From: Sipunculus nudus
Lineage: Eukaryota > Annelida > Sipuncula > Golfingiida > Sipunculidae
Direction of reading: 5' to 3'
Assembly: GCA_026874595.1 (NCBI GenBank)
Contig: CM049317.1
Location: 75,856,891 to 75,920,890, forward strand
DNA length: 64,000 nt
This document shows positions 23,501-51,200 of the stretch, one piece after another; within the stretch, counting starts at the first letter, position 1, and the number at the start of each line of letters is the position of its first letter. A program made the position numbers and the translations under genes. A model generated the notes under the pieces. It worked only from the letters and a program-made list of their open reading frames with translations, was not told the origin of the DNA and did no database searches.

Positions 23501-26500
23501 AGGTCAAGGTCACAGGACCAACATCTTCAAAAAGGTTGTGGATTGATAGATGGAAGAAACAATAATTGCTTGCCAAGTGTCAGTATATGCTGCTAAAAAT
23601 TGGGGCTTATTCTTAAAGGGGGGGGGGGGGCAACTATGTTTGGGGATACTCTGGCACCTGCGGTGCCAAGAAATGTCTAGTTAGTTAATTCCAGTATTGG
23701 TATTTTTTAATTGTAACAGGTAACCAAGTACAAGTCTACTTGAATGATGGATACAAAAATTAATATGTGGTGGTGTAATTGGTGTTAACAAATTAATAAT
23801 GAAATTTAAAAGAGGACAATAAAAAAGCAGGAAGCCAATCCGATGAACAAACTAAAGAAGAAAAATTAATTCCAATATGAGGCCAGTTTGATGGAAAATG
23901 CACTCAAGAAAAATTCCTATCAGTGATATATCCACACACACGCCTCTGCCTGGGGGAGGCCTTTTATATGCCACATATTTCACCCCTCACCTGTACCCGG
24001 CCATGCAGGTGTGTAGCGCGAGATGAGGCCATGTGTGTGTGATGCTCTCCTCATCAAGCGTGAAGCAGATGGTTTACATATAGTGTGTGTAGCTCCAGAG
24101 CATCCTGTACCAGCTTATCTGAGGTCTTCTTTATGTTTATTTACCTGTGTGTGTGTGTGTGTGTGTGAGGGTGTGTATGTGTGTGTGTCTTACACACATG
24201 GTATATCAAGCTTAGTAATAAAGGAAGCAAATCAATTAAAAAAAATACAAAATTTAATAGAGCAGCTTTATCTCATCACAGCACTAGTTATGATTGAATG
24301 AATGAATGAATCATTTACTCAAGTCAGTAAATGTCTTGTCTGTAGAACGAATGCCGTCTAATGTAATAAATATCCTTTATTTTCTGTAATGTAAAAAAGG
24401 GTATTAACAATTACAGCAATGAATGTGCTGCCATGTACTGACAGACCAACTGAACCTGCTTCACTCTAAACTCCGGTTTTCAGTTTCTGGTGGTTTAAAC
24501 TTAAATTTTATGAATAAATAATAAAAATTGTACCCTTAAGAAAATTGGTCAGCAACATTATAAAAAAAATACATCAACATTTATATGAAACAATCATTAA
24601 ATAGTTTTAAGAAATACTTCCTTCAGGGAATCCATAAGAACCATGATTACTCAAGATGTTTTATTTTGTATATTACTGATGTCTTGAATTTCTAGGAGTA
24701 ATTTTAAACATCTGTTTTACAGAGGAGGCTGCCATGACAGAACCTGCCTGGGCAGGATGCGGCCAGGAAGTAGGACTTAAAATTTGGCGTATTGAGGTGG
24801 GTGTAATTGAAAATATTATCTATGGTATTGAGGTGTAGTGGAAAATAATCTATAGTATTGAGGCAGGAAAGTAGGAAATATTATCTATAGTATGGAGGCA
24901 CCAGTAGGTTTATTGGAAAAATGAATTACCCAGAAATAGAGAATCAATTGAGTGAGATCTTGTGGAATTAAAAAATATGCTACCTTCAGTCAAGTTTTGT
25001 CTTATGTAACTCTAAGGTTGTTGCTCAGGTATAGTATGAAAAAACATGTCTTTTGAATTATTTGTTACTTCCTATGTTATATTAGCTATTACAAAATATA
25101 AATCCCAGCAGAATTTGGATCTGTGGACTGTAATTTTGTTTTTATTTCAGCAATTTAAAGTGAAAGATTGGCCAAAACAAGATTATGGCAAGTTCTACAG
25201 TGGTGACTCTTACATCATTCTCAATGTAGGTATTCTACCTTAATGAAGAACCATTTCTGAAGTTACTGCACTATAATGTGTGGAGAATGTGGGCTCCTGA
25301 TTAAATTTAATGCATAAAACATAACATAACCCCGCTCCTTGGCAGAGGAAACTATGATATAACCTATCATATGATAAAATGAAATTATTCACAGGTATCA
25401 GAGATAAAGTAAATGTTTGCTCACACTCATTCTTAGCAGCCATTTAATGGCTTTTATGATAAAGATTTAATGATTATATTGAAGGCTTTAATGATTAAAG
25501 CTAGAGATGGTGCTTTGGGTTTGTCTTCAATTAAAAAGAAAGATGCACGGTGTTAATTGTTGCAGACATACAAACCTGACCCCAACAGCGAGGAACTCGC
25601 ATACGACCTCCACTTCTGGATCGGCAAGTACAGCACACAGGTAAGCTCATTAACCTGGGAAACAGAGAGTATGTCAGGTGACAACAACTATGACCTGTTA
25701 TTTAAAATATAGACTAGTGTCAGGTAGAAAGATCTTTAATTAAAGACATAAGCATGGTAATGAGAGAATGTCAGCTTATTGTTTCCATGAAACAGATCAG
25801 TCACATGTTGTTGGGGTGAATGTTTAAAAAACTGTGGTGGTTAAGTTCATGTTGTTATTATATAGGTGTATCAGAGATATCAGTAAAATGAACACGTCGA
25901 AGGCAAACATCCCAGTCACCAATATACAGAGTTACCTCTTTATGTCTGCTATCTAAAAAGCTACTTCTGTTATCTGACAGTTGTGTGAAATATGTCAAAA
26001 ACAATAGCGTCATGAAGAACTATCTGTAAAGGAAAGGATATGTTAAAGGTACATAGACAACATGAGATCATTATTAGTAATACGAGTACCATAACTGCAT
26101 ATTTGATAACTGACTCAGCAACTGATGATACCATCAGATAATATTGCCACGTGCTCTTTTGTATTTAGTTTCATGCTGGCTGTGATATATTCTTAATTTT
26201 TTGCTGATGAATCACTGGGATGCATGTTATTGTGGTTTCCCCTTATGTTCATCAGGCTTTGATACTGGAAGCATCTGGTTAGTGTACTCTCTCTCTTATC
26301 TTCCAGTGCACCGTCTTTATAAAATTGTGTCATAATGACAGTTATAAGTAGTAATGCAGTAATAAGTGAAGAATGACAAGAATGGTGTTTCTAATCTTTG
26401 GGTGTCCCCATTTGTCATTGTGTCTGTGAGACAGAGAAAAAGAAAGAGAAAGAGAGTAAGAAAGAAAGAGAGTGAAAGAGAGTAAGAAAAAGAGAGAGAA

Positions 26501-29500
26501 AGAGAGACAGTGAGGGAAAGATAAAGATAAAGAAAAAGAGAGAGAGAAAGAGATGGATTAATCAGTTAATGTGTAGAATGCAATGAGACTGATCTGTTTC
26601 ATGGAAGAAAATCTGACAATTTAAAAAAAAAAAATTAGTTGTAGAATGCAGTTCATTAGACTGGCTCTGACTTAGATTTGGAGCATAAATTGAAGTTATT
26701 TGTCCACATTTTTATTGTCCAAATGATAACCTATGTGCATCAGAAGCTTGTTATATGTTAGCAGAAATCTGATTGATTTTCGATTTTCAAACTTAAAGTG
26801 TAATACACTGAGAACCATGTGGAACAGAGCAAAATGTTGGGCCTGTTGGTCAACGTACAAATAAACAAGTTAACAGTGAAGAGCCCAGGCATCAGCAGTA
26901 TTGTAAATTTACTTTTGCAGCTTGATACAAATCTTGCAGTTCTAAATTAGCATGGAATTTTTATCTTAACAAGTTTTATTTGTTTGTAATTTTAAAAGAG
27001 TCAGTTATGGTTTGTGATGTGCAGTTGACAGTTTTGAAATGCAGCATGGAAAGAAACTGGAAAATAAATGAGCAAAATAGAACTTTTAGATCTTAACATT
27101 TGATACAAGTTTCAATTGCTCAATTCAACAAAATATTGAATTTTGCACAATAGTAGATAAATATGTAATATCTCTCTTTGATATATTAAAATTTTTATTG
27201 ATAGACTGTAATTCCATGTTTGAAATTGTGTTAAAAGTCAATGTTATATAATCATTGGCCAGGCCAAACTTACAGCCTCTTGAATAATAACTTAAAAATT
27301 GTGCTGTTTATAATGCTTTGCATATACTGTATTAAGCTAAGCTTAAGTGTAACCCATATTTAAGCTTATATGTTTTCCAGTTGTGTTTCATGTGATGTGT
27401 GCAGTGATTGTGGTTACTTTGAAATGTCACAATTTTATGCATGTATTGAGTTGAGCAAGTCATCCTGCATGGCACAGTTGAGTGTTTTTCTGTAGCATAA
27501 GTATGTATTTCTTAGTTTACTTAAGGAAGAGAGTGACACACTTAATATTCTGTAGGATAGGTACAATACACGATTGTATTTAGTATTAGTATGGTACCTC
27601 TTTTGAAAGTGTTTATGGTACACATTACAGTCTTTTAGAGTGTGTATGGTACTCTTACTTCTCTACAACATGAGTATATGTCCCTGTAATTCTCCTTTAG
27701 GATATATATGGTACACTTCTCTTTAGGATGAGTATGGTAAACTTAATATTCTCTAGGACGAGTATGGCACAGCTGCATACAAAACAGTGGAACTGGACAC
27801 ATTTTTAGATGATAAGCCAGTACAACACAGAGAAGTGCAGGGCTTTGAGTCTGCATTGTTTAAGAAAAACTTTAAACAAATACAGTAAGTCCCCCCATCT
27901 GACATCCTCCTGATTTGCATGATCTGTATAATCACAAATCATTTTCCTTCACTCTGCTTTAATCCATTGGATACCATCAAGTGGAAAAATCTAAACTTTT
28001 GTAATTAAAATTCTGTTAATTTTTAAACACCTAGCATATTAAGTCATTTGAAAGATGAGGGCACTTTTTATGTGTGGTTAGTACCACCTGGTACCCCTTG
28101 GAGTGTGAAAGCAGAGTGAAGCTTCAACATCAGAATCTTGCTGGGGGTCTTTTGCATATTAACAACTCTTGTTTGAGAGATGTATGGCACAAATTTCCAG
28201 AAAAGGCATTTCAATTATGGAATATTCCTATTAATAGCATGGATCACACTTTATTGTGTATATAAGAAATAAAAAAATTAATTTCTGTTAATCACTTACC
28301 ATGATGAGCATTATGATTAAAAGCGAGGAATTTGTGCCATTCATTAAAAGAAACAGATAATTTTAGTTTCTAATAACTTTGACTATAACAAATGAAATAA
28401 GCATGGTGGACTGGTGTAGATTATAGCAAATTAGTGCAGGGTTTTTGCACAATTAATTATTAATAAAAGCATTAATTAAGGCTAGCAGGCATAAAAAAGT
28501 CATAATATTTATTTATTTTAATGGAAAATAATTAAATGCAAAATTAAGATAACAATGTAAATTTAATCATCTTGAAAATGAAAGATGATAAAATATTATT
28601 GATTGCATTATCAGCAAATATTTCATTATATTATCAGTTATAGAATCCATTTTGGATAAGTTCTGAAATTAAAGTACTTTTTTAAAAGTACCAGGAAAGG
28701 TTTGTCACCTTTCTTATATAATTTTCATTCAAATGAATATTGATTCATAGAAAATTTATGCCTGTGATTTTATTCAAAATTTGAATGTGGTTTCTCTTGA
28801 TGCATATATCAGTGTCAGAATCTTGGGTGTTTCCATGGATAGAGCATTGCATGATAGGATTTCTTCACAGTGTGCTTGAGCTGAGCAGGTTGCCATGGAT
28901 ACAATGCTTCCTTGGATATCATCATAATATTTCAGTCTCTTTATATCTTGTGTTGGTGTGTTCTGCATGACACAAAAAAAATTTACTTTCAAGCTTTTCA
29001 CAATGACAGCTTTAAACTTTTGATGATGCAGTTGTATTCAGGCTTTCTAGGCCTTAAGACCATCTGTATTCATTTAAAGAAGATTGGAAATCATAATATA
29101 TCTAATTCAAAAGACTTGATAACAGAATTATACAAACTCAGCCTAAACCTGGGCCGTTAACTTACTATTTCATTGTTTTTATGTAATCCATTTTACAAAT
29201 AAAGGTGTATAAAACCAGACACTTAGATTTTGATGGCATGTCAGTCATGAATATGACTTCAGTAACCTTCATCTTCATATAGAGTATAGTTGCCTCTACT
29301 CACGAATTTAAAATCCTGTCCTCATGACAGTATACACCTTCTGATGTCCCCTCATCTAAATCACCCAACAAATGGTACAGGTCAAGTTGACCATCCCCAG
29401 TTCACATATATTATGCAAATAAGGGCAAACAGTCAAAGAAATGACCTTTAGGATCTGTATTAAAAAATCAGAATTTTATTAGTGCTGAAATATCTGGATT

Positions 29501-32500
29501 TCCCCATCCTGTTTAATATTTAAATAGCTGAGACACTGTTCATGTAATGTAGCAGGTTATCTTCACATGTCCGTACCAAGCCTCCTTGTTCAGTATCTTC
29601 CTAGTTACTGGTGAAGTTTTGCATAGGTTGGTCACAGAATTCCATTTTTCATAATTCTTTACTTTGAATAGTTTCACCTCATTTGATCCTTTGAATGCTC
29701 ATGTCATGAGTTGCTCATTTTATTTGGCTGCTTATTAATTTTCAGCTTATTAAAATAATCATATGTTCTGTTACACCTGCACTCTGAGTCACTTGCTTCA
29801 ATCTCAGCCAATGCTCAGTCCTGGTGGCCAAAACCAGCAGTCCATAAACGTCTAGGTGAATCTTTCATGTTTTCCACAGGGAAATTGGATGCTTGAACTG
29901 CTGTTTATTATAATCTCGATCCGCAGCAACACTAACATGCTGTTCGCTGGCATCCAAATCACTTCCTGAAACTGCTGCTAACATTGTTACATATGAGCTT
30001 GTGTGTGTGTGCACAGCAACAATCTCTGGTTATTCCTCTGAGCTGATGTGTGTTTACACACAATATTGTTGCTGGCTGTTTGTCTCAGTTGGTGTGTGTG
30101 TTTGTACACAGTGTCATTGTACGCAGCTTTGTGTCATCCATCTACGTGTTCTTCATCTTCTTTGACCCGTCAAAGTGGAAGACGTAATTCTAGAATTATT
30201 ACTGTTAAAATACAGAGTGATAAAGAATGCAATACAAACATAAACCATTGGGAATCATCCCGAGACTTCCTGGTTCCAGGTATCACATACAAAACGTAGC
30301 TATAAGGCTAACACAAAAAAATAAAGACATGAAGATAATACATTCATTGATTGCCTTGTGTCACTCACTGGGCACACTATGTACACATCAGTACCGCTGA
30401 CCTCAGCTGTGATACAAAACACACAAACCAGATCCACACACTGGGCACTGACCATCGTCTTACTGCAAATGAACAAGCCAACCAGTATAGTGTGTGTACA
30501 CAAAATTTTACTCTAAAACTAACCAATCAGAATACTTAACGGTGGACACATAATAAAAGACATACCTATGTACACATGATAAAAGACATACCTATGTACA
30601 CATGATAAAAGACATACCTATGTACACATGATAAAAGACATACCTATGTACACATGATAAAAGACATACCTATGTACACATGATAAAGGACATACCTATG
30701 TACACATGATAAAAGACATACCTATGTACACATGATGAAAGACATTCCTATGTACACATGATAAAAGACATACCTATGTACACATGATAAATGACATACC
30801 TATGTACACATGATAAAGGACATACCTATGTACAGATGATAAAAGACATACCTATGTACACATGATAAAAGACATACCTATGTACACATGATAAAAGACA
30901 TACCTATGTACACATGATAAAAGACATACCTATGTACACATGATAAAGGACATACCTATGTACAGATGATAAAAGACATACCTATGTACACATGATAAAA
31001 GACATACCTATGTACACATGATAAAAGACATACCTATGTACACATGATAAAAGACATACCTATGTACACATGATAAAAGACATACCTATGTACACATGAT
31101 AAAAGACATACCTATGTACACATGATAAATGACATACCTATGTACACATGATAAAAGACATACCTATGTACACATGATAAAAGACATACCTATGTACACA
31201 TGATAAAGGACATACCTATGTACACATGATAAAAGACATACCTATGTACACATGATAAAAGACATACCTATGTACACATGATAAATGACATACCTATGTA
31301 CACATGATAAAAGACATACCTATGTACAGATGATAAAAGACATACCTATGTACACATGATAAAAGACATACCTATGTACACATGATAAAAGACATACCTA
31401 TGTACACATGATAAATGACATACCTATGTACACATGATAAAGGACATACCTATGTACAGATGATAAAAGACATACCTATGTACAGATGATAAAAGACATA
31501 CCTATGTACACATGATAAAAGACATACCTATGTACACATGATAAAAGACATACCTATGTACACATGATAAAGGACATACCTATGTACACATGATAAAAGA
31601 CATACCTATGTACACATGATAAAAGACATACCTATGTACACATGATAAAAGACATACCTATGTACACATGATAAAAGACATACCTATGTACACATGATAA
31701 AGGACATACCTATGTACACATGATAAAGGACATACCTATGTACACATGATAAAAGACATACCTATGTACACATGATAAAAGACATACCTATGTACACATG
31801 ATAAATGACATACCTATGTACACATGATAAAAGACATACCTATGTACACATGATAAAAGACATACCTATGTACACATGATAAAAGACATACCTATGTACA
31901 CATGATAAAGGACATACCTATGTACACATGATAAAGGACATACCTATGTACACATGATAAATGACATACCTATGTACACATGATAAATGACATACCTATG
32001 TACACATGATAAAAGACATACCTATGTACAGATGATAAAAGACATACCTATGTACACATGATAAAAGACATACCTATGTACACATGATAAAGGACATACC
32101 TATGTACACATGATAAAAGACATACCTATGTACACATGATAAAAGACATACCTATGTACACATGATAAAAGACATACCTATGTACACATGATAAAAGACA
32201 TACCTATGTACACATGATAAAAGACATACCTATGTACACATGATAAAGGACATACCTATGTACACATGATAAAAGACATACCTATGTACACATGATTAAA
32301 GACATACCTATGTACACATGATAAAAGACATACCTATGTACACATGATAAAAGACATACCTATGTACACATGATAAAAGACATACCTATGTACACATGAT
32401 AAAAGACATACCTATGTACAGATGATAAAAGACATACCTATGTACACATGATAAAGGACATACCTATGTACACATGATAAAAGACATACCTATGTACGGA

Positions 32501-35500
32501 TGATAAAAGACATACCTATGTACACATGATAAAAGACATACCTATGTACACATGATAAAAGACATACCTATGTACAGATGATAAAAGACATACCTATGTA
32601 CACATGATAAAAGACATACCTATGTACAGATGATAAAAGACATACCTATGTACACATGATAAAAGACATACCTATGTACACATGATAAAAGACATACCTA
32701 TGTACACATGATAAAAGACATACCTATGTACACATGATAAAAGACATACCTATGTACACATGATAAAAGACATACCTATGTACAGATGATAAAAGACATA
32801 CCTATGTACACATGATAAAAGACATACCTATGTACACATGATAAAAGACATACCTATGTACACATGATAAAAGACATACCTATGTACAGATGATAAAAGA
32901 CATACCTATGTACACATGATAAAAGACATACCTATGTACACATGATAAAAGACATACCTATGTACAGATGATAAAATACATACCTATGTACACATGATAA
33001 AGGACATACCTATGTACACATGATAAAAGACATACCTATGTACACATGATAAAAGACATACCTATGTACAGATGATAAAAGACATACCTATGTACAGATG
33101 ATAAAAGACATACCTATGTACACATGATAAAAGACATTCCTATGTACACATGATAAAAGACATACCTATGTACACATGATAAAAGACATACCTATGTACA
33201 CATGATAAAAGACATACCTGTGTACACATGATAAATGACATACCTGTGTACACATGATAAAAGACATACCTGTGTACACATGATAAAAGACATACCTGTG
33301 TACACATGATAAAAGACATTCCCTATGTACACATGATAAATTACATACCTATGTACACATGATAAAAGACATACCTATGTACACCTGATAAAAGACATAC
33401 CTATGTACACTTGATAAAATACATACCTATGTACACATTATAAATGACATACCTATGTACACATGATAAAAGACATACCTATGTACACATGATAAAAGAC
33501 ATACCTATGTACACATGATAAAAGACATACCTACGTACACATGATAAATGACATACCTATGTACACATGATAAAAGACATACCTACGTACACATGATAAA
33601 AGACATACCTATGTACACATGATTAAAGACATACCTATGTACACATGATAAAAGACATACCTACGTACACATGATAAATGACATACCTACGTACACATGA
33701 TAAAAGACATACCTACATACACATGATAAATGACATACCTATGTACACGTGATAAAAGACATACCTATGTACACGTGATAAAAGACATACCTATGTACAC
33801 ATGATAAAAGACATACCTATGTACACATGATAAAAGACATACCTATGTACACATGATAAAAGACATACCTATGTACACATAAAAAAAGACAAACCTAGAG
33901 TGCTTTATCATACAATAAAGATTAAGTACCGTGTTTCAGTCAGTATCCTACACAAGCACAGAATGCATGATATAGGCTTAGTCAGTATTATTTTGCACTG
34001 TGCAGACAGTACCTTTCAGTCACTCGGTGTGTTAGTTGTAGCCAGTGCCTTATATGGAACCTTAGTGAATGATGTACGAGTGTGCTATTATTTGATCAGG
34101 ATGAGTACGGTGCTGCCGCCTACAAGACGGTCGAGCTGGACACGTATCTGGATGATCAAGCCGTCCAGCACCGTGAAGCGCATGACTTTGAGTCGGACTT
34201 GTTTCTGTCTTATTTTGAATATGTTAAGTAAGTTTGCATGACGGTGTGCACTTGTACACTACTGACGGGGGCAAGCGGTGCTTTTTGTTACAGGATACCC
34301 TAATTCTAGCTCTCGTTGGCTTCTGTCTAGCATATGAATTTCAGTTAATTTTCTATCCCATCATGCAATTCACCTCAGGATGAGTTTGGAAGTGCAGCAT
34401 ATAAGACTGTGGAATTGGATACATATTTGGACGATGCCGCTGTTCAGCATCGTGAGGTACAGGGATTTGAGTCCGCCGCATTTAGAAAACACTTCCCAAC
34501 CATGCAGTGAGTAGCCCTGGTGGTAAACATCGTATAGTCAAGTGAAAACCCAATATACTTTCAAACACTCGCTTTTTACCCCTGGAACAGGCTTAGTCCG
34601 CAAGGGATGATGGTGCCATAGCTTTCTGTTTTTCAGGACATAGAACATACAATTACCCCTTTTGGGGTATTTGAGTTTCAGTCCTGTTTCTTGTTGCTTT
34701 TGGAGACGTTTACATGTACATAATTTCTTATTTTTAGCTCATTATGTAAGTAGCTGGTAAGAGGTTGGTCAGATATTCCCTTTCAGACTCCTGACTTCAG
34801 CAAATGAACTCAACTTGTTTCATCACATGGATTTCCAACTGTATTAAATCATACAAAAATATATGCTGAATTTGACCATATTTTTCACCCACCAAAATTT
34901 AAATCCCTATAAATAAGAAGAATAAACATCACAAAACTAAATTTTGTCCATTAATGGTTCCATTTATATACAAAAAAGTTCCATATATATTCTATGTTGG
35001 TGTGATCTTTAATTTGGAAACAGCAATTTCTTTACAGAAAATTTCAAACAAGCTTAATAAATGTTGAAATTCTCCAAATTTACAATAATGAAAATGATCA
35101 GTATCTTCGAGCTTCACATATACTGCTCACAGTCATTCTCAGAGGCCAGTTTTCTGAACACTTGCTTCCATTTTCCTTATTTCCATAATATTTTAAACAA
35201 ATATCAGTTATCATCATCTAGAAATGATGAACACTTGAAATGATGAACAATCCCTGGAAAAGCCTGGGAAATTCAGTCCCAAACTAATACAAACATATTG
35301 CCCTCGGGAGGTGTCGTTTATGATATAGCAAATCTTAAGCTTTACTAAAGTGAAAAGATATTTGTTTACCAGGACGAGTATGGTTCTGCTGCCTACAAGA
35401 CCGTAGAACTGGACACATTTTTGGACGATAAACCAGTCCAGCACCGTGAGGTCCAGGATCATGAGTCTGACATGTTTCTAAGTTACTTTAAAGAAATTAA

Positions 35501-38500
35501 GTAAGTAAATAATAGCATGGATGATCCCAGCATGCTGAGTGACCTAATTAATAATAAGCAAAAATGATGCTGGTGGGCTGTTGATTCGTAGTTTGACCGC
35601 CAGGGGGCGCCAGCAGGCTGATATTGCTTGATTCTCTCCTTGATCAGCAATAATGGTTGCATGAGCCAGGAAACTGCATGGACATTTACTGAATTGCTAT
35701 TCACAGTAAATTTCAGGATTTCGAGATATTGATGAATTTAATGACATGAGTACGAGATCTGGCTTATCTTTGGTAATGCTGATTTGTTAACAGTTTCATA
35801 TTTCACCCTAGAACCATTGATTGAGTTACATGTAGAAGAAACAGTCACATGCTTATGAGTAATGTATGACAAATAGCAATTATACAGATGGTTCTTTGAG
35901 AAACAATCTGGCTTTGGTATACAAAGAAAAAACAAGAATATGGAGACACCATTTACAAGAAATTAAATGCAAAATTTTCCTTTAAATTCAACAGATTTTT
36001 ACATGCAACAGCCTCTTGCCAAGTGACCATCAGGCTTCATTTTAGCTATTGCTTCAACAACAAAATTTATGTCTGTTGATCTAGTTAAGTTTTGTATTGC
36101 ATTTTTGGTTAAAATACATGAGGAAACAGTTGGTGTTTTTTTTTTATGATTTAACATTTGATGTTTTATGTTCATATTATAAATTTTCTTTTATTGCTTT
36201 AACAAGAATTTATCAAAATCACGTTTAAAATCTGGGTTAAGATTATCATCTGTCACTCATGTCAGTAAATTAAGCAACAACTGGAAAGGATTTTATTATT
36301 ATTATAACATACTCAGGTCCTGCCACCTTAGCTTCACCTCCTGGAGAACCTGTGTGTTCCTGCTGCTAGTCGCCATCGGTCAGACTGAGAGGAAGAACTA
36401 TCCGCTTCTAGTTGCGTATCTCATAACCCTTGCTTGTTTTAGGATGAGTATGGTAGTGCAGCATACAAGGCTGTTGAACTTGACACGTTTTTGGACGATA
36501 AACCTGTCCAACACCGGGAGGTGCAGGGCTTTGAATCAGACCTTTACCAATCTTACTTTAAAGAAATAACGTGAGTAACAGTGACCTTGATCTGATTCCC
36601 ACCCGAGCATGACCTCCCGTCATGTCCTAGTGAGAGAAGGATATGAACCTCGTTCCCAGAACTTAACTGTCATAAAGTAGCATGGTTCACAGACCAACAC
36701 ATGGATTACCAGAGGTCACACTTAGGACTGCAGTGTGACACTTGTTGCTGTGGTTCAGTCACACAAAAACATGCATATTGTGTCATTCTGGTCCATTATG
36801 ACCCTCACTGCTGTGGTTTAGAGAGTCATAATGAGATTGTGATGTGTCTAGTTGCTGTAGTTCATTGAGTCACACATGGATTGCTATGTGACTTTTTTTT
36901 ATTGCTGTCGTACATAGAGTCACAGATGGACTGCAATATTGTAACTCATAATTAAAAAAAATCACGAATTTGTAAGACCTCATTTGTAAGCCATTGGCAT
37001 CTTTACATTTGTATTTAAAATGCACTTGTTTTGTGCTTTGATTGTTTGAAATATTAAAGAAGAATACTCAATGTCTGTGGCAATGACATTTAAAAACTGA
37101 AGTATCTTTCACTAAAGTTTGCTAAATATAGCAAACAAGTAAAGTGTTCAGTCTTCATAAAAATATTGGTAATTGTGCAAAATAACGGACCCATCTTACA
37201 TGGTCTCACAAAAAAGTGTGACCACATTTCAATGAAAAAACTGTTTCATGTAAAAGTTGAAAATCTGGCCCATCTAATGATACAATATTTTTGTATGTTT
37301 GATATAAATATATTTTGCTACAAACTGTCGAAAAAGGGTAGTTTGCTGAAAATACTCAAAATGACGTCGTGTCAAAGACGTTCTCAGCCGACGTCATGAA
37401 TCCACAGTACTGTACGTGCATACCATGTTAAACAAAAGGATGATGTCTAAAAAAATATATCTTTTTATGCCTAGATAGAGAGACAATTTTACCTCTAAAT
37501 ATCCATATTTCCCAAGATTTAATAAAAGTTGACGACGTCGTGCCGCCTAAAACATAAACATGCAACTGTCGTCTGTGAATGTATTCGACTGATCACGTTA
37601 ACTCTTGCTCTGTTCAGCTTTGTTTCTATGTACGTTTTATATGTCAAATAAATATAAATTGTGTAATAAACAGTCATTTTTGTGGACAGAGTATAAAGAC
37701 TACATTTTAGACATGTCATTTATCTTATTTATTTTTTTTTGGTCCTGTTAGACTACTTTATGTAAAGACAATCAGATGGGAACATCCCCTCCCCATGAGT
37801 AACAGACCAGTAGCCCTTAAAATTGAGACGAACGCGGGAGAAACACGGGACCATGTTGGGCATATCATCCATATGTGACCACATTTTATAATATTATATA
37901 TAATACAAACTTATATGGCTGGTCAAATAAAATGTGGTCACACCTTATTTTTGTCAATATTTATTGTGAAAAATGTGGTCACACCATGTGACCACATTTT
38001 ATAATATATTATATATATATATATATATAATACAAACTTTTATGGCTTGTCAAATAAAATTTGGTCACACCTTATTTTTGTTAATAATTATTGGTAAAAA
38101 ATGTGGTTACACCATATGTGACATCATTAAAATATTATATATATAATACAAACTTAAATGGCTGGTCAAATAAAATGTGGTCACACCTTATTTTTGTCAA
38201 TATGTATTGTGAAAAATGTGGTCACACCATATGTGACATCATTAAAATATTATATATATAATACAAACTTATTAGGCTGGTCAAATAAAATGTGGTCACA
38301 CCTTATTTGTAAGAGAGAGAAATATGGGTCCGTTATTTTGCACGATTACCAAAATATCATAAATGGACCTTCCAAATTTACTTGTCCTTTTTCTAATGGC
38401 ACACAATAGTTCATCAAAATGCCAGTATAAAAGAGAGAAACAACCCACTAGCAGTCAGTTTTGGACATTGTTAAGGTAACCCTGCAGTTGATATTTAGTT

Positions 38501-42219: not shown

Positions 42220-45200
42220 ATAATTTATATATAAAGATAGATAGATAGATATATATAGATAGATATATGGTATACTGTGTTATAATATGTTCCTATGACA
42301 TAATCCCTTTTAATAAAATTATTTTACTCGTAAACTTCTGTTGATTGTTAATCTGATTGTTAATACGTTTAAGAAATAGCAGTCAACAAGCTGTTGTTTT
42401 TGTTACACCTCCAGCTGATCATTAGTGTGCTGAGTAAATGTGATTAATGACACTAATTTATTTATCTAATTATTATTCAGCATTGTTTACTGTATTAATC
42501 TTTGCTATGGTCTCCAGATAAATATTTGCTATGGTATACAATCATGGCAATTAAAACAGTAGTTCTGTAGTAAATGTATCAAAAGTTGCTATGGTAACCA
42601 TGTAGTCACTTATTATAGCATCATGGAGGGTGGAGCTGAGACCGGCTTCCGTCATGTAAAACCCGAGGAATACCAGCCGCGCCTGCTTCACGTGTCTGGC
42701 CAGCGTAGAAGTGTCACAGTCAAAGAGGTTAGGCTTAGTTCTTGTCAGTTGGTTGAGATGTCAAACTTCACCCTGGAGGGTGACACTTTTCACCAAAGCC
42801 AGAATTTTAATGGTTGAAGGACCACAAAAACCTGTAACCTGATGATCAGATAATAACTCTTGTAACAATTGCTGATTTGATAATAATCCTTAACAAATGC
42901 TTATTGGATGAAAATCATTGAAATAGATGCTGACTGGTAAAAATACTTGTAACAAATGCTAATTGGATGAGAATCCTTGTAACAAATGCTGTTTGAATGA
43001 AAATCCTTGTGACGAATGGTGAAAGTATAAAAATCCTTATAACAAATTTTAATTGTATCCCCAGACAAAGTCGGGGGATACTATGTTTGCATACCGGTCC
43101 CGCCGCCGCCGCCGCATATAAATCTTGTTGGCGCGATAACCCAAAAAATATTTAACGGAACTTTACCAAACTTGGTATATGTATAGATATGGGTAAGAGG
43201 ACGACGCCTATTTAAAATGAGGTCATGATCTTTACTAGGAGAGTGTCCTTGACCTTGAATAGGTCCAATTTTGAGGAAAATCACACAAATTCTTTAATAT
43301 CTCAGGAAATCTTGCATGGATTTATCCCAAAATCAAGTTGATGGAAGATCATGGATAGGGTTGTCATGTTCCAGAAACTGGTGGCGCCACCTATTATTCT
43401 TTACTTGTTTTTGTGCCGTCTAATACCCCCAAAATTGCCACTTTACAGTACTGTGAGCATTATAAGTCAAAAACTAATGGACAGATTTCTTTTATATTAT
43501 GCATATACATAGGTATGGGTTATGGGATGATGTTTATTTAAATTAGGGTCAGGACCTTTCCCATGATAGTGGCCTTGACCTTGAATATTGCCATATATGG
43601 TGAAAATCACACACCTCTTATGATATCTCCAGTGTTGATAGACATATGGATTTCAAACATGACTTATATATGGCCCACCACTAAAGTAAGAACCCTATAG
43701 GTTCTAGGGTCATGAGGTCAAAGGTCAAGGTCACTGGACTGGCATTTTAAAAGATACTGTGGATGCATTTTAAGCCAAACTTTCATCCCAGGTCTTCCAT
43801 CTTGAATATATAGCTCACTTACCAAAAGTGGATGATCAATATAAATTTTGGGGTCACAAGGTCAAAGGTCAAGGCCACAGGAGCTATCTGTCCAAAAATT
43901 AGTTTCTGGATGATAATTCCTGCTTTTATTGATGTATTGATTTCAAATTTGACTTATATATGTCCCATTGAAAAAGCAAGACTCCAGTTTTTTTTTGGGT
44001 CATTAGGTCAAAGGTCAAGGTCACAGGACACATCTTTAAAAAGATTGTGGATGCATTTTCAGCCAAACATTTCATCTCAGACCTTTCATCTAGCACATAT
44101 AAGTCATCTGCCAATAGAGGAAGACCCCTATCAGTTTTGAGGTCACAAGGTCAAAGGTGAAGGTCACAGTAGCCATCTGTCCAAAAATTAGTTCCTGGAT
44201 GATAATTCCTGCTTTTATTGATGTATGGATTTCAAACTTGACATGTATATGTCCCATTGGAAAAGCAAGACCCAAATTGATTTTGGGTCATGAGGTCAAA
44301 GGTCAAGGTCACAGGACACATCTTTAAAAAGATTGTGGATGCATTTTTAGCCAAACATTTCATCTCAGATCTTTCATCTTGCACATATAGTTCACCGGCC
44401 AAGAGTGGAAGACCCCTATTAGTTTTGAGGTCACAAGGTCAAAGGTGAAGGTCACAGGAGCCATCTGTCCAAAAATTAGTTCCTGGATGATAATTCCTGC
44501 TTTTATTGATGTATGGATTTCAAACTTTACTTGTATTTGACCGATTGGAAAAGCAAGACCCGAATTGATTTCTGGGTCATGAGGTCAAAGGTCAAGGTCA
44601 CAGGAAACCTCTTTAAAAAGATTGTGGATGCATTTTCAGCCAAACAATTCATCTCAGATCTTTCATCTTGCACATATAGTTCACCTGCCAAGAATGGAAG
44701 ACCCCTATCAGTTTTGAGGTCATAAGGTCAAAGGTGAAGGTCACAGGAGCCACCTATCCAAAAATTAGTTTCTGGATGATAATTCCTGCTTTTATTGATG
44801 TATGGATTTCAAACTTGACTTGTATATGTCTCATTGGAAAAGCAAGACCCAAATTGATTTTGGGTCATGAGGTCAAAGGTCAAGGTCACAGGACACATCT
44901 TTAAAAAAATTGTGAATGCATTTTCAGCCAAACATTCCATCTCAGATCTTTCATCTTGCACATATAGTTCACCTGCCAAGAGAGGAAGACCCCTATCAGT
45001 TTTGAGGTCACCACGTCAAAGGTGAAGGTCACAGGACCCATCTGTCCAAAAATTAGTTTCTGGATGATAATTCCTTCTTTTATTGATGTATGGATTTCAA
45101 ACTTGACTTGTATTTGACCGATTGGAAAAGCAAGACCCAAATTGATTTCTGGGTCATGAGGTCAAAGGTCAAGGTCACAGGACACATCTTTAAAAAGATG

Positions 45201-48200
45201 TGGATGCATTTTCAGCCAAACATTTCATCTCAGATCTTTCATCTTGCACATATAGTTCTCCTGCCAAGAGAGGAAGAACACTATCAATTTTGAGGTCACA
45301 AGGTCAAAGGTGAAGGTCACAGGAGCCATCTGTCAAAAAATTAGTTTCTGGATGATAATTCCTGCTTTTATTGATGTATGGATTTCAAACTTGACTTGTA
45401 TATGTCCCATTGGAAAAGCAAGACCCCAATTGATTTTGGGGTCATGAGGTCAAAGGTCAAGGTCACAGGACACATCTTTAAAAAGATCAAGGTCACAGGA
45501 CCAATATCTTCAACAAGATTGTGGATTGTTAGCTGGAAGAAACAATAAATATGCCAAGTGTCAGTATATGCTGCTAAAAATGGGGGTCTATTCTTAAAGG
45601 GGGGGGCCTACTATGTCTGGGGATACTCTGGCACCTGCGGTGCCAAGAAATGTCTAGTTGAATGAATATCCTTATACCAACTGTAGATTGGATGGCAATC
45701 ATTATAACAAATGCTGATTGGACAAAGGGATGATGGTATGATGTCATGTAAACTCTTTTTAAAAGTAAAATCCAGCTGAAACTAGAAATGTGCTCAGAGA
45801 GCGCAGACCTCCACCAAGACAGCTCATAACCCCCATATGGCATTGTCAGAAGTGCAGCGTTTTCCCATTAAAAATTCTTGGATTCAGACCGTGATCTAGA
45901 TCACACCCAAAATTTGATCAATTGTTCCTTGTATAATTGCAGAGCTATCCGGAAAATTGCATCAAAATCAGTTCATTATGTTGCAAACACGCACAGACAA
46001 ACCAACGCCACCATAAACATAAGCCCTGCCGCTTGGCAGGGGTAACAACGATGGCTATACTGATGCAGGGACATACCTGATTTGTTAGATCACTTTCAAG
46101 AGTCCAAAAAGTTGTGAAACATAAACTGGAGATTTTAGAAAAGTTCTTTATCTATAGTTAGTTACTTCCATATACAGCTATTTAGAAAATTATTGAAAAA
46201 TATGTAGTAAATTTTAAGAAATTTATCTCCTAAAACCAGGTGGACACAGGTTTGTGAAACGGCTAGAGTCTGGAAAGGTCTCATGAACATAGAAAAGTTG
46301 TAATGCAAAATTAAAAACAGATAAATTTGTATGCATGTCATTCACACACATATAAGATTGAAATATATTGGTCAAAGCAAGTTAATCCAAACAATATCAA
46401 ATTGAATTTGCAGTGTGGTAAATATTACACAAACCTGTTATTATAATGTGCTGCCATCTAGGGGCATATAATAAAACAAATTAATTGGCACAGAACTGCT
46501 GACACTTGCTGACTTTGCCAGTCTAAGATTGATCTGAAAGCTTGTAATTTGAACTTTTAGCCTTGATGATGATCATATGATTTCTGGGTGTATTTGGAGT
46601 AACATGATTCCTGGTGTGTGTCTACAGGTACCACTGAACCGCTCTCGTCTGACGGACGATGATGTGTTCATCCTGGACATGGGAACCATGATCTACCAAT
46701 GGAACGGAAACAGCTGTAACAAGGACGAGAAGTTTAAGGTGAGGATATGTGTGTCTGATTATATAATTACCAGCTTCTGTGGTAATTACTATAAATCTTA
46801 TTGGATGCAGCACAAAACAAAAATACCTTGGGCACATTTGCCTGTTGTGCCACCTGGTGGCCTTTTTTAGCTCAGCTGACTTTCAGTCATGCTGGGCTAT
46901 AGCGATGGGTCTTTGTCCGGCGTCCTTCCGTCTGTCCGTCCGGCGGGCCATCCGGCCGTTAGCAGGGCACAAATCGTAACCGTAGGGGCTAGGGCAATGA
47001 ACCCTATGCAGTCTTAGAGGTTCTAAAATGATCTCCTTGCAAACCTGAAATTAGGTCACTGCGACCTATATTCTCAAAGTTATGGGGTGTGTTTGCACCC
47101 CCCAGAAATAATTCTTTTAGCCAAAATTTTCATCCCAAACCTTCCATCTTTCACATACAGCTCACCTACCAACAGGGGAAGAACCATAATTATTTTGAGG
47201 TCACAAGGTCAAAGGTCAAGGTCACAGAACCAACTTCTTTGAAAAACCTCAGGATGCATTTTAAGCCAAACCTTTCATCCCAATTCTTTGATCTTTCACA
47301 TATAGCTCACCTACTAAGTGGGAGAAGAATCCGATATATGTTGAGGTCACAAGGTCAAATGTCAGGGTCACAGGATCCACTTCTTTGAAAAGGTTGTGGA
47401 CACATTTCAAGCTAGACCTTTCATTCCAAACCTTTCAGCACTGATATCGCTTCTCTGCCAACAGGGGAACAGACCTGTTGATTTTGAGGTCAAAGGTCAA
47501 GTTCACAGCACCCTCTTCTTGCGTGGAGTCATTTTAAGGCAAACTTTTCAATCTATACTTTCCATCTGTCATACATGGCTTGCCTACCAATAGGAGAAGA
47601 AGCCTATTGATGTTGAGTTCAAAAGGTCAAAGGTCAAGGTCACAATATTGTTCTAAATGCTTGTGAACATATTTCAAGTGAAACTGTTCAACCCAAACCT
47701 TCAGTTTTTTACATATGCCACATCTATGGATCACTGAATTTGATTCAAACTTCATATTTATGGGTATTTTTGCATGAAGAAATAATTAATTGATTTTGAG
47801 GTCAGCTGGTCAGGAGGTTAAAGGTTGCAGGTCTAAGTTATTCACTCATTGGTTGCCAAGTAATTACACCCGGCCAGATGTAAGTGGTAAGTAGTTACCC
47901 ATCATTTAGAAAGAATCCAGTTGATATGTGGGCAAAAGGCCAAGGTCAAAGGTCAGGGATGTTCACAATAACTTATTTTGTAGACCATCTCTATTTTTCT
48001 TGTTTTCGTGTATATATAACCATGGCACTCACAACTGGTACATCTCACTATATGTGCTCATAATTGTCAGTGACACTTGTGATATATGACTCCCTTTTGT
48101 ATCAGCTCATGGAGTGATAAGGATATATCATTAGTGCATAACAAAAACACTGTTGCCGGAATGCTTTGGCCAGGCATTAAGACCAAGAGAGTTTAGTGTT

Positions 48201-51200
48201 AAGGATTAGCTACTGATTTATAAAATGATGGGAACATTTTGCAGTTTATTTCATGGAATCATAGCAATAAACTTAGTTTTCTGGATATCTGAATATTATT
48301 ATACAAATCATCAGATATACCAGCAAGTGTTTGTTCTGATAATATGTGGGTCTTTACCTGGATTTAGAATGGCTTAATTTTATTACAAGACTCTTAGTGA
48401 TGCTTTCTGCATTTCTTTTCTTTTAGGTTTTGCAGTTTACCTACCCTACTGACCCCATTGAATAGCAAGCTGATAATTAAATCAAATTGGACTTGCACTT
48501 TTTACATTTGCATGTTCATAAATCTGATATGAGAGCTCTCCAACCTGATCATACCTTTTGAATTGTTTTGGACATTCATAACTGTTACATTCTTTGAAGC
48601 AATTGCTTCAAGTTAAGTGTCTTATTGGAGGATGTGTGATATCAAATGTCAGACTTGTCAGAAAACCATTATGTCTGCCAGGTAGCCATTTTAGAAATCC
48701 TTTTGCCAGGGCAGTTTCTGTGATTTTTTTATGATGTTTGGTCCCTTTTAGAGGATGTTTGTTGTTCAATTTCCGGCCTGTCAGAAATCCAATATGGCCA
48801 CCAGGAAGCCATCTTTAAATTCCTTTAGAACATATTATCTCAAGAACTATTAAAGTGAATGCAGTGGGATGTATATTAATGTTATATTGCATTGGGTCAA
48901 AGATTTCTTAATAAATATGACCATCATTTATGAAAGCTCAGTACAGTTGGCTTGTATTGAATAAAAATTAATATGGAAGCACCCGTTTCACAATAATTCT
49001 TGCATGGATTTCCTTGATCTTTTGCTATATTTTGATCTTAAATGTGGCCTGTGTGGTATTCCTTTTGAGACTGACAGGTATCGAGCAAGCTGTGGGATTA
49101 GTTCCTGATAGCTCAACAACCATACATTTTGCCTCAGACCATCATTGTATCCCCAGACAAAGTCGGGATACTATGGTTTCATGACGGTCCCCCCGCTGCC
49201 GCCGCAGAAAAACCTTGTGAGTGGGATAACTCAAAAAATATTTCACTGATAATTTTCAAACTTTACATTTGTATAGATATTGGTAAGGGGACGAAGCCTA
49301 TTTAAAATGGGGTCATGACCTATGCTAGGAGAATGACCTTGACCTTGAATAGGTCCATTATTGCTGAAAATAATACAAATTCTTAAATATCTCAAGTAAG
49401 CTTGCATGGACTTGTCTAAAAATTAAGGTGACCGAAGATCTTGGATAGCCTTGTGATATACCGGAAACTGGTGGCGTCACCTATTATCCTTTTCTTGTTT
49501 TTACGCCTTTAAATACCCCATAATTGCCACTTGACAGTACTGTAAGCATTATATGTCAAAAACTAATGGACAGATTTCTTTCATATTATGCACATGTAGA
49601 GAGATGGGCTATGGGATGAGGTCTGTTTACATTTAGGTCATGACTTTTACCATGAGAGTGGCCTTGAACTTTAATGTGTCCATATTTGGTGAAAATCACA
49701 CACCTCTTTTGATATCTCCAGTGTTGATAGCCATATGGATTTTAAACGTGACTTATGTATGGCCCACTACTAAAGTAAGAACCCTATAGGTTCTAGGGTC
49801 ATGAGGTCTAAGGTCAAGGTCACTGGACTTGCATCTTACAAGATACTGTGGATGCATCTTAAGCCAAACTTTCAAGGTCTTTCATCTTGAATATATAGCT
49901 CACTTGCCAATAGTGGATGATCCATATCAATTTTGGGGTCACAAGAACAAAGGTCAAGGCCACAGGAGCTAAATGTAAAAAAAATAGTTTTTGGATGATA
50001 ATTCCTGCTTTTATTGATGTATTGATTTGAAACTTAACTTATATATGTCCCATTGAAAAAGCAAGACTCCAATTGATTTTGGGGTCATGAGGTCAAAGGT
50101 CAAGGTCACAGGACACATCTTTAAAAAGATAGTGGATGCATTTTCAGCCAAACATTTCATCTCAGACCTTTCATCTTGCACATATAGACCACCTGCCAAG
50201 AGTGGAAGACCCCTATCAATTTTGAGGTCACAAGGTCAAAGGTGAAAGGCACAGGAGCCATCTGACCAAAAATTAGTTTCTGGATGATAATTCCTGCTTT
50301 TATTGATGTATAGATTTCAAACTTGACTTATATATGTCTCATTGAAAAAGCAAGACCCCAATTGATTTTTGGGTCATGAGGTCAAAGGTCAAGGTCACAG
50401 GACCAACATCTTCAAAAAGATTGTGGATTGATAGATGGAAGAAACAATAATTGCTTGCCAAGTGTCAGTATATGCTGCTCAAAATGGGGGCCTATTCTTA
50501 AAGGGGGGGGGGCCTACTGTGTCTGGGGATACTCTGGCACCTGCGGTGCCAAGAAATATCTAGTTCGCTATGTTTAACCAGACATACATGATAAGAATTT
50601 ATGGCAATGTAGAAAGTTTAAACAAAATTGGCATATAGGTTCTGCAACAATTTTACTAGTTGTGAATCGCAGCCCATGATGTCGCAGGTCATGCTTGGCA
50701 GCTGAGCGTCATGACCCATGGGTCACTTGTTTTAATAAACACTCAAAAGAAATGCTCACAAGATTACTTTCTTGCTGTAAGTGTATAAAATATAAAAAGT
50801 TGACAATATGTGCTTTAAATGGAACAGAAATATGATTTAATCCCCAGTTTGATATGAAAATGAAAAATGTGAAACTATTAATTTCAAGCCTGAATTGAGC
50901 ACTAGATGGCACTGAAGAGCAGTCTTGGTATTACTGTAGAGTTAACATTATAAGTTGCATCGTTATTATTCAACATTGGACCCTACATGGCACTTATCAA
51001 CATGAGTTGTACTAATGGAAAAAGTAATTATCATATTATAAGAATGTATAACCAATGTATTTGCAGGCAGCACAGTTCTTGGCCACCCTGAAGGGAGAGA
51101 GAGGCAACGCACAATCAGACACGCTGGATCAGGCTGACACCCCTGACACGGTAGTTGCATCATTTCATCATTTTAAGTATTGAGCTCATCTGACACCATA

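What the first reader, a model, noticed from the sequence alone, without database searches (positions are those of the whole stretch)
27757..36570. Five mutually exclusive copies of the G1 exon in a gelsolin-like gene
Five 128-nt exons, all with consensus acceptors and donors, encode the same 42-residue segment of gelsolin domain 1. All are open, in the same phase and lack disabling changes, so they look like functional alternatives rather than pseudo-exons. This would give one actin regulator five versions of its main actin-contact module. I do not recall this being described for gelsolin-family genes; that needs a literature check.
Basis: partly seen in the sequence, partly recalled or inferred. 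Interest (0 to 1): 0.88.

Follow-up and report, generated by a model that had tools for sequence, protein, structure and literature searches.

The report
Five swappable exons in a gelsolin gene
A gene for a small actin-regulating protein of the gelsolin family, probably from an animal, carries five interchangeable copies of one exon, built so that only messages with exactly one copy encode a whole protein; the copies keep the actin-gripping helix almost unchanged and differ mostly elsewhere in the domain.

Summary
Five 128-nt exons at 27757, 34100, 34379, 35373 and 36443 lie in one intron of an intact three-domain gelsolin gene (modelled CDS 24734-54540, 338 aa, three PF00626 repeats). Each alone gives the full protein; of all 32 inclusion patterns only these five stay open. 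The copies are old: synonymous sites are near saturation and flanks share only short matches. No sixth copy was found in the window or by an exon search of the 1.43-Gb assembly. They form one clade apart from the paralogues. [quoted passage not shown] No transcript could be examined. The papers listed by seven searches (partial lists) show no gelsolin MXE cluster. The kind is known; the gene and the pattern of variation are the news. Mollusc origin was not tested.

The parts
24734..24796 (+). coding exon 1 from the ATG (an acceptor-like AG lies just upstream; an untranslated exon may precede)
   Evidence: spliced model; N-terminus aligns with gelsolin
25151..25225 (+). coding exon 2, with the G-D motif (GDSYIIL)
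   Evidence: alignment
25566..25640 (+). coding exon 3, shared upstream partner of all five variants (donor after 25640, phase 0)
27757..27884 (+). variant 1 of exon 4 (short helix FKKNF, basic class)
30546..33897 (.). 26-bp minisatellite, about 129 copies, 96% matches, in the intron between variants 1 and 2; context only, no role shown
34100..34227 (+). variant 2 of exon 4 (FLSYF, acidic class)
34379..34506 (+). variant 3 of exon 4 (FRKHF, basic class); 151 nt after variant 2
35373..35500 (+). variant 4 of exon 4 (FLSYF, acidic class)
36443..36570 (+). variant 5 of exon 4 (YQSYF, acidic class)
42619..42727 (+). coding exon 5, shared downstream partner (phase 2 acceptor)
46628..46738 (+). coding exon 6, in gelsolin repeat 2
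51067..51150 (+). coding exon 7 (weak donor GTAGTT, score 0.4)
52135..52226 (+). coding exon 8
52499..52577 (+). coding exon 9
53369..53467 (+). coding exon 10, in gelsolin repeat 3
54439..54540 (+). last coding exon, ends in TAA

Best explanation
This is a functional cluster of five mutually exclusive exons in a three-domain gelsolin (CapG/severin/fragmin-like architecture). The splicing machinery joins exon 3 (25640) to one of the five and that one to exon 5 (42619). Each copy is 128 nt, so skipping all or using two or more leaves an early stop far from the last junction; such messages would be removed by nonsense-mediated decay. The result is one protein with five interchangeable inserts covering human gelsolin residues 96 to about 139. 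All five keep the long helix that enters the actin cleft, with its acidic calcium ligands. They differ mainly in the short helix on the other side of the sheet and the stretch after it, in two classes (basic: 27757, 34379; acidic: 34100, 35373, 36443). So the cell most likely swaps not the main actin grip of domain 1 but how that other region behaves: contact with domain 2 in the closed state (hence calcium response), lipid binding, or partner binding. Shown: anatomy, frame logic, constraint, pattern of variation. Inferred: use of all five in RNA, decay of errors, and the functional effect.
For: Exact exons and phases. Only 5 of 32 patterns open; the other 27 stop 533-953 nt before the last junction. 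pS 0.63-1.00 against pN 0.11-0.24 over ten pairs. A neutral 128-nt exon keeps its frame, AG and GT in 0.18% of 20,000 runs at 1.5 substitutions per site. The other ten coding exons show no second copy in the window beyond a weak mutual match of exons 6 and 10 (two gelsolin repeats, E 0.006), so this is not a tandem gene array. The five form a clade (100/99) apart from two own-genome paralogues, villin and gelsolin, in a 40-column tree. Variable columns: long helix 4 of 17, strand E 1 of 6, short helix 6 of 6; net charge of the last eleven residues +3, -2, +2, -1, -1. Passages of PMC5368644 place the long helix (95-112) in the actin cleft and the short helix (128-133) on the other side of the sheet. 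Passages of PMC4647846 put domain 1 between domains 2 and 3 in closed adseverin, its main actin face masked by domain 3.
Against: No transcript was examined: how many copies are used, and whether strictly one at a time, is unknown. The only positive evidence for exclusion is the frame; introns between copies (151-6215 nt) are long enough to be spliced, all sites are ordinary GT-AG, and a coarse docking/selector test gave no clear signal. The column split was chosen after seeing the data. Faster change in the short helix could be relaxed constraint: in codons 29-42 only 4 of 10 pairs give a finite dN/dS, 0.31-0.78, none above 1. Against the control idea: residues 135-142 are said to overlap a G-actin site as well as a PIP2 site (passage of PMC6080781), and the short helix of domain 1 is among the flexible parts of closed adseverin (passage of PMC4647846), which weakens the idea of tight packing on domain 2. 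No related species could be searched.
Confidence: 0.74

Rival explanations
1. One copy is the working exon and the other four are old duplicates that are rarely spliced in, or serve mainly to lower protein output by producing early-stop messages (splicing noise or poison-exon control).
For: Double inclusion or skipping always gives early stops far upstream of the last junction. No dedicated exclusion device was found.
Against: All five keep open frames, splice sites and 67-86% protein identity despite near-saturated synonymous sites; a neutral copy would keep frame and splice dinucleotides in 0.6% (1.0 substitution per site) or 0.2% (1.5) of runs. A pure poison exon would not need its 42-residue frame kept.
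Confidence: 0.15
2. The cluster is a mutually exclusive set whose choice is set by competing RNA pairing (docking site and selector sequences), as in insect Dscam.
For: A number of MXE genes work this way (start of abstract of PMC6071210, listing), and it has been proposed to follow from tandem exon duplication (passages of PMC9013439). In the layout with docking after exon 3, only 1 of 12 shuffles did as well on the worst-of-five measure.
Against: In the same layout 5 of 12 shuffles had a better mean energy; with docking before exon 5, 12 of 12 shuffles did as well on worst-of-five and 2 of 12 on the mean. Flanks share only short matches of up to 17 nt, best E 0.004. Flanks of 300 nt at most and 12 shuffles per layout, one species: not excluded.
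Confidence: 0.15
3. The copies are remnants of tandemly duplicated genes, or an assembly artefact (unmerged haplotypes).
For: Tandem gene copies are a known false positive for this kind of prediction (passages of PMC3228551).
Against: None of the other ten coding exons has a second copy in the window (exons 6 and 10 match each other weakly as two gelsolin repeats). Haplotypes would be nearly identical, but pS is 0.63-1.00. All five lie in order on one strand between intact shared exons.
Confidence: 0.02
4. The five exons differ chiefly in how they bind actin (five actin-contact modules).
For: The exon does encode the long actin-binding helix. Long-helix columns for human 98, 100, 105 and 111 differ among copies. 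Residues 135-142, where the exon ends, are said to overlap a G-actin site (passage of PMC6080781).
Against: 13 of 17 long-helix columns are identical in all five, and the four changes are Y/F, T/A/S, T/A and F/Y. Beyond strand E 13 of 16 columns vary, up to it 7 of 27 (post hoc split, Fisher p 0.0006).
Confidence: 0.25

Closest known systems
Muscle myosin heavy chain MXE clusters of molluscs, annelids and arthropods (Kollmar and Hatje, PMC3912159; listing and passages seen)
   Same: Clusters of same-phase alternative exons that retune one part of an actin-cytoskeleton protein; scallop, oyster, Aplysia and Lottia examples are given.
   Different: A motor protein with several clusters per gene; here one cluster of five in a gelsolin-family protein.
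Three-domain gelsolins and N-terminal halves in the PDB: CapG (1j72, 1jhw), fragmin pieces (7w4z, 6ljc), gelsolin G1-G3 (1rgi), adseverin A1-A3 (5a1k)
   Same: Three gelsolin repeats; residues 6-332 align with nearly all of CapG.
   Different: No alternative domain-1 exons for these appeared in the listings. In this gene all five copies have T and D at the human 110 and 114 positions, and several basic residues of the 135-142 site are replaced.
Human MXE clusters (PMC5740500; listing and passages seen)
   Different: 'Gelsolin' does not occur in its main text. The passages also report reads joining two such exons, so the frame rule may act after splicing.
Coronin-1D exon 5a/5b (PMC3203266; passages)
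   Same: Alternative exons in another actin-binding protein.
   Different: Two copies, vertebrates, WD-repeat protein.
Insect Dscam clusters (starts of abstracts PMC6071210, PMC8042237 in listings)
   Same: More than two alternatives, one chosen.
   Different: Docking/selector pairing not clearly detected here.
Oyster CgiLBP5 lipid-binding protein MXE pair (PMC5399370; listing and passages)
   Same: Alternative exon in a bivalve; the authors plot surface charge of the two forms.
   Different: Two copies, different protein family.

Membership tests
Cluster of mutually exclusive exons | Neighbouring internal exons of similar length | tested here: met
   five of 128 nt between shared exons 3 and 5
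Cluster of mutually exclusive exons | Same splice phases and reading frame, no in-frame stop | tested here: met
Cluster of mutually exclusive exons | Sequence homology among the exons | tested here: met
   28-36 of 42 residues identical; clade 100/99
Cluster of mutually exclusive exons | Exactly one present in each functional message | tested here: inconclusive
   by frame only 5 of 32 patterns can code the whole protein; no reads available
Cluster of mutually exclusive exons | At least two alternatives seen in transcripts | not testable with these tools
   no RNA data
Docking/selector (Dscam-type) MXE | One intron site complementary to an element beside each copy | tested here: inconclusive
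   worst-of-five: 1 of 12 and 12 of 12 shuffles as good in the two layouts; mean: 5 of 12 and 2 of 12
Tandem gene duplicates (false positive class) | Other exons of the gene also repeated | tested here: not met
   0 of 10 other coding exons repeated in the window, apart from the weak 6/10 repeat-to-repeat match
Gelsolin superfamily, three-domain type | Three gelsolin repeats and little else | tested here: met
   PF00626 E 2.3e-37, three stretches in 338 aa
Gelsolin superfamily, three-domain type | Acidic calcium ligands of domain 1 (human D66, E97, D109) | tested here: met
   G-D in exon 2; E and D in all five copies. Roles of 66 and 97 recalled; 109 from a passage of PMC5368644. Position 114 is D, not G, here.
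Gelsolin superfamily, three-domain type | Calcium-dependent severing or capping | not testable with these tools
   needs purified protein

The most novel reading that the evidence does not exclude
A five-state actin regulator: one gelsolin gene fixes the actin-gripping helix of domain 1 and swaps the other side of the domain by mutually exclusive splicing in two charge classes, so that different tissues set the calcium threshold or the membrane (PIP2) response of the same severing protein.
Probability: 0.28. Interest if true: 0.75.

Novelty: new member of a known kind. Interest (0 to 1): 0.56.

Why it matters
Here one gelsolin gene appears to hold five versions of the domain that caps and severs actin, with the actin-docking helix held constant. 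That is a natural set of five replacements of the short helix and the segment after it, and it lets a direct question be asked: does that region set calcium or lipid control? It would also add a gelsolin to the actin-system genes, such as myosin heavy chain and coronin-1D, that make variants by exon choice rather than by more genes.

Tried and rejected
Sixth or decayed copy: tblastn, a 128-nt AG/GT scan, hmmsearch and nhmmer with filters off found only the five in the window. A genome search with a blend of the five gave seven matches at E up to 10: the five, one on C16, one on C2 (the tool scores only best candidates). A DNA search with copy 27757 found only three of the five, so it is the weaker test.

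Docking/selector pairing: two layouts, 180 and 283 candidate sites of 30 nt, 12 shuffles each, no clear signal; figures under the rival. Steric exclusion: gaps of 151-6215 nt make it unlikely, except possibly for the 151-nt gap. Minor-spliceosome incompatibility: all five donors are GTRAGT.

Recent duplication, haplotype artefact, tandem genes: rejected. Multiple domain-1 exons in paralogues, in the six neighbourhoods fetched: C2 23.38 Mb has the segment once, apparently split by an intron; C16 60.35 Mb has one strong match (E 8.5e-12) and one weak one (E 0.001) that I take for another gelsolin repeat; C16 35.58 and C2 61.77 have partial matches; C2 28.56 none; C3 94.1 only a weak one outside the segment. 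Divergent copies may be missed. In one search the block headed L011 mixes loci L011-L014 by a file slip; one search is the clean version.

Not tried: structure prediction.

Limits: column split chosen after seeing the data. Synonymous sites saturated, so dN/dS is rough (6 of 10 pairs infinite over the whole exon). The donor matrix is from recalled frequencies; donors of exons 2, 7 and 9 score under 2. The neutral simulation ignores indels. The tree has 40 columns. Seven bear on gelsolin exons or molluscan gelsolins: 7 of 7 listed; 7 of 7; 25 of 182; 20 of 31; 20 of 210; 20 of 176; 20 of 21. Subscription papers and preprints are not held, so absence from print is not proved. Fifteen papers were opened, all by passages only; PMC9433394, PMC12674126 and PMC5302490 added nothing decisive, and PMC4465641 mentions only an isoform with a different N-terminus.
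Full report
OBSERVATION. The five exons were read directly from the window. Each is 128 nt, preceded by AG, followed by GTAAGT or GTGAGT, and open in frame 0. Any two share 28 to 36 of 42 residues. tblastn of each against the window finds the other four at E 5e-15 to 5e-21; the best other match to any of the five has E 0.16. One copy searched against PDB sequences matches domain 1 of villin, gelsolin, fragmin, CapG and adseverin (44 distinct sequences at E up to 0.001).

THE GENE. A coding model was built by hand from splice sites and homology: eleven coding exon positions from ATG 24734 to TAA 54540, AG and GT at every junction, matching phases, 338 residues with any one of the five copies. 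Some shared donors are weak (exons 2, 7 and 9 score under 2), so small boundary errors are possible. Pfam gives three gelsolin repeats (PF00626, E 2.3e-37). The PDB comparison aligns residues 3-333 with the N-terminal half of gelsolin and 6-332 with nearly all of CapG. The window is G000:C12:75856891-75920890 of a 1.43-Gb assembly in 153 contigs. A search with PF00626 lists 15 matches at E up to 1, on C2, C3, C12 and C16 (lower bound). A search with a blend of the five copies lists seven: the five, and one each on C16 and C2. On C2 the region appears split between two exons. As far as these searches reach, the array is confined to this gene.

FRAME LOGIC. 128 leaves a remainder of 2 on division by 3. 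All 32 subsets were joined in genomic order and translated. The five single-copy messages give 338 residues. The other 27 (none, 10 pairs, 10 triples, 5 quadruples, all five) stop early, even the quadruples whose total length keeps the frame. The early stops lie 533-953 nt before the last exon junction, which in animals generally marks a message for nonsense-mediated decay (recalled rule). In humans 377 MXE clusters (60%) have lengths not divisible by three, though reads joining two such exons do occur (passages of PMC5740500); so the frame may select after splicing rather than during it.

AGE AND CONSTRAINT. pS is 0.63-1.00 and pN 0.11-0.24 over ten pairs. In the flanking introns blastn found only short matches, up to 17 nt, best E 0.004. 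Under neutral substitution a copy would keep frame and both splice dinucleotides in 0.6% of runs at 1.0 and 0.2% at 1.5 substitutions per site (20,000 runs each, indels not counted). None of the other ten coding exons is repeated in the window; exons 6 and 10 match each other weakly (E 0.006) as two gelsolin repeats. A tree of 40 columns puts the five in one clade (100/99) against C16, C2, villin and gelsolin, with 27757 and 34379 as sisters (95/91). So the array arose inside this gene, long ago, and has been maintained.

WHERE THE COPIES DIFFER. Column 1 of the exon is human residue 96; residue names in passages of PMC5368644 (Asp96, Glu97, Asp109, His119, Glu121) fit, and the last columns may shift by one because of a one-residue gap. 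That paper gives a long helix at 95-112 that enters the actin cleft, strand E at 117-122, and a short helix at 128-133 on the other side of the sheet. Variable columns: long helix 4 of 17 (Y/F, T/A/S, T/A, F/Y); loop 2 of 4; strand E 1 of 6; 123-127 3 of 5; short helix 6 of 6; last five 4 of 5. Up to the end of strand E 7 of 27 vary, beyond it 13 of 16 (Fisher p 0.0006; split chosen after seeing the data). The short helix reads FKKNF and FRKHF in 27757 and 34379, FLSYF, FLSYF and YQSYF in the others; villin, gelsolin and both paralogues have FLxYF. Net charge of the last eleven residues is +3 and +2 in the first two, -2, -1 and -1 in the rest.

LIKELY WORKING. In calcium-free adseverin, domain 1 is sandwiched between domains 2 and 3; domain 3 masks its main actin face, calcium releases that latch, and the domain 1-2 contact is lost next (passages of PMC4647846). 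The short helix lies across the sheet from the actin-binding helix, so it may lie toward domain 2 (inference; contacts were not seen). Against this, the same paper counts the short helix of domain 1 among the flexible parts. A PIP2 site of gelsolin is residues 135-142, where the exon ends, and it is said to overlap a G-actin site (passage of PMC6080781). In this gene several of its basic residues are replaced, while two copies carry a basic pair one helix turn earlier. I think it most likely that choosing a copy changes control (calcium, lipid or partner) more than actin docking. That step is inference.

SPLICING CONTROL. Spacing between copies is 6215, 151, 866 and 942 nt. All five have ordinary sites, GTRAGT donors with no G at -1. 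A coarse search for one docking site able to pair with an element near each copy gave no clear signal. Worst-of-five energy: 1 of 12 shuffles as good with docking after exon 3, 12 of 12 with docking before exon 5. Mean energy among the three best sites kept: 5 of 12 and 2 of 12 as good. What makes the choice is unknown.

WHAT IS KNOWN. Seven searches of the open library (five of the lists cut short) listed no report of such a cluster in a gelsolin gene; listings and passages were read, no whole paper. Nearest parallels are myosin heavy chain clusters in molluscs (PMC3912159, passages), coronin-1D (PMC3203266, passages) and an oyster lipid-binding protein (PMC5399370, passages). A gelsolin-like protein is enriched in scallop catch muscle (PMC5963113, passages), and gelsolin-like protein 2 in Aplysia transport complexes after training (PMC9829102, passages); whether either is this gene is not known.

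VERDICT. A real, old, maintained five-exon cluster in a three-domain gelsolin, very probably spliced one at a time. It is a new member of a known kind, with the added point that variation largely avoids the actin-docking helix.

Noticed in passing
30546-33897: A 26-bp minisatellite of about 129 copies at 96% matches fills 3.35 kb of the intron between variants 1 and 2 and ends about 200 nt before variant 2; its length may vary between individuals (not tested).
   Followed up: no
43645-45487 and 49734-50428: A 288-289-nt tandem repeat (6.4 and 2.4 copies, sub-periods near 145 nt) in two different introns of the gene; stretches before each array also match at 80-88% about 6.1 kb apart.
   Followed up: partly
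L037/L038/L011/L012 (C16 near 60.35-60.38 Mb) and L013/L014 (C2 near 23.38 Mb): Own-genome gelsolin or villin relatives without an array of this segment; the C2 one appears to split by an intron the segment that is a single exon here.
   Followed up: partly
27757-27884, 34100-34227, 34379-34506, 35373-35500, 36443-36570: All five copies have T at the human D110 position and D at G114, beside the actin/calcium contact, unlike the villin, gelsolin and paralogue segments compared; the gene as a whole may bind that calcium differently.
   Followed up: no
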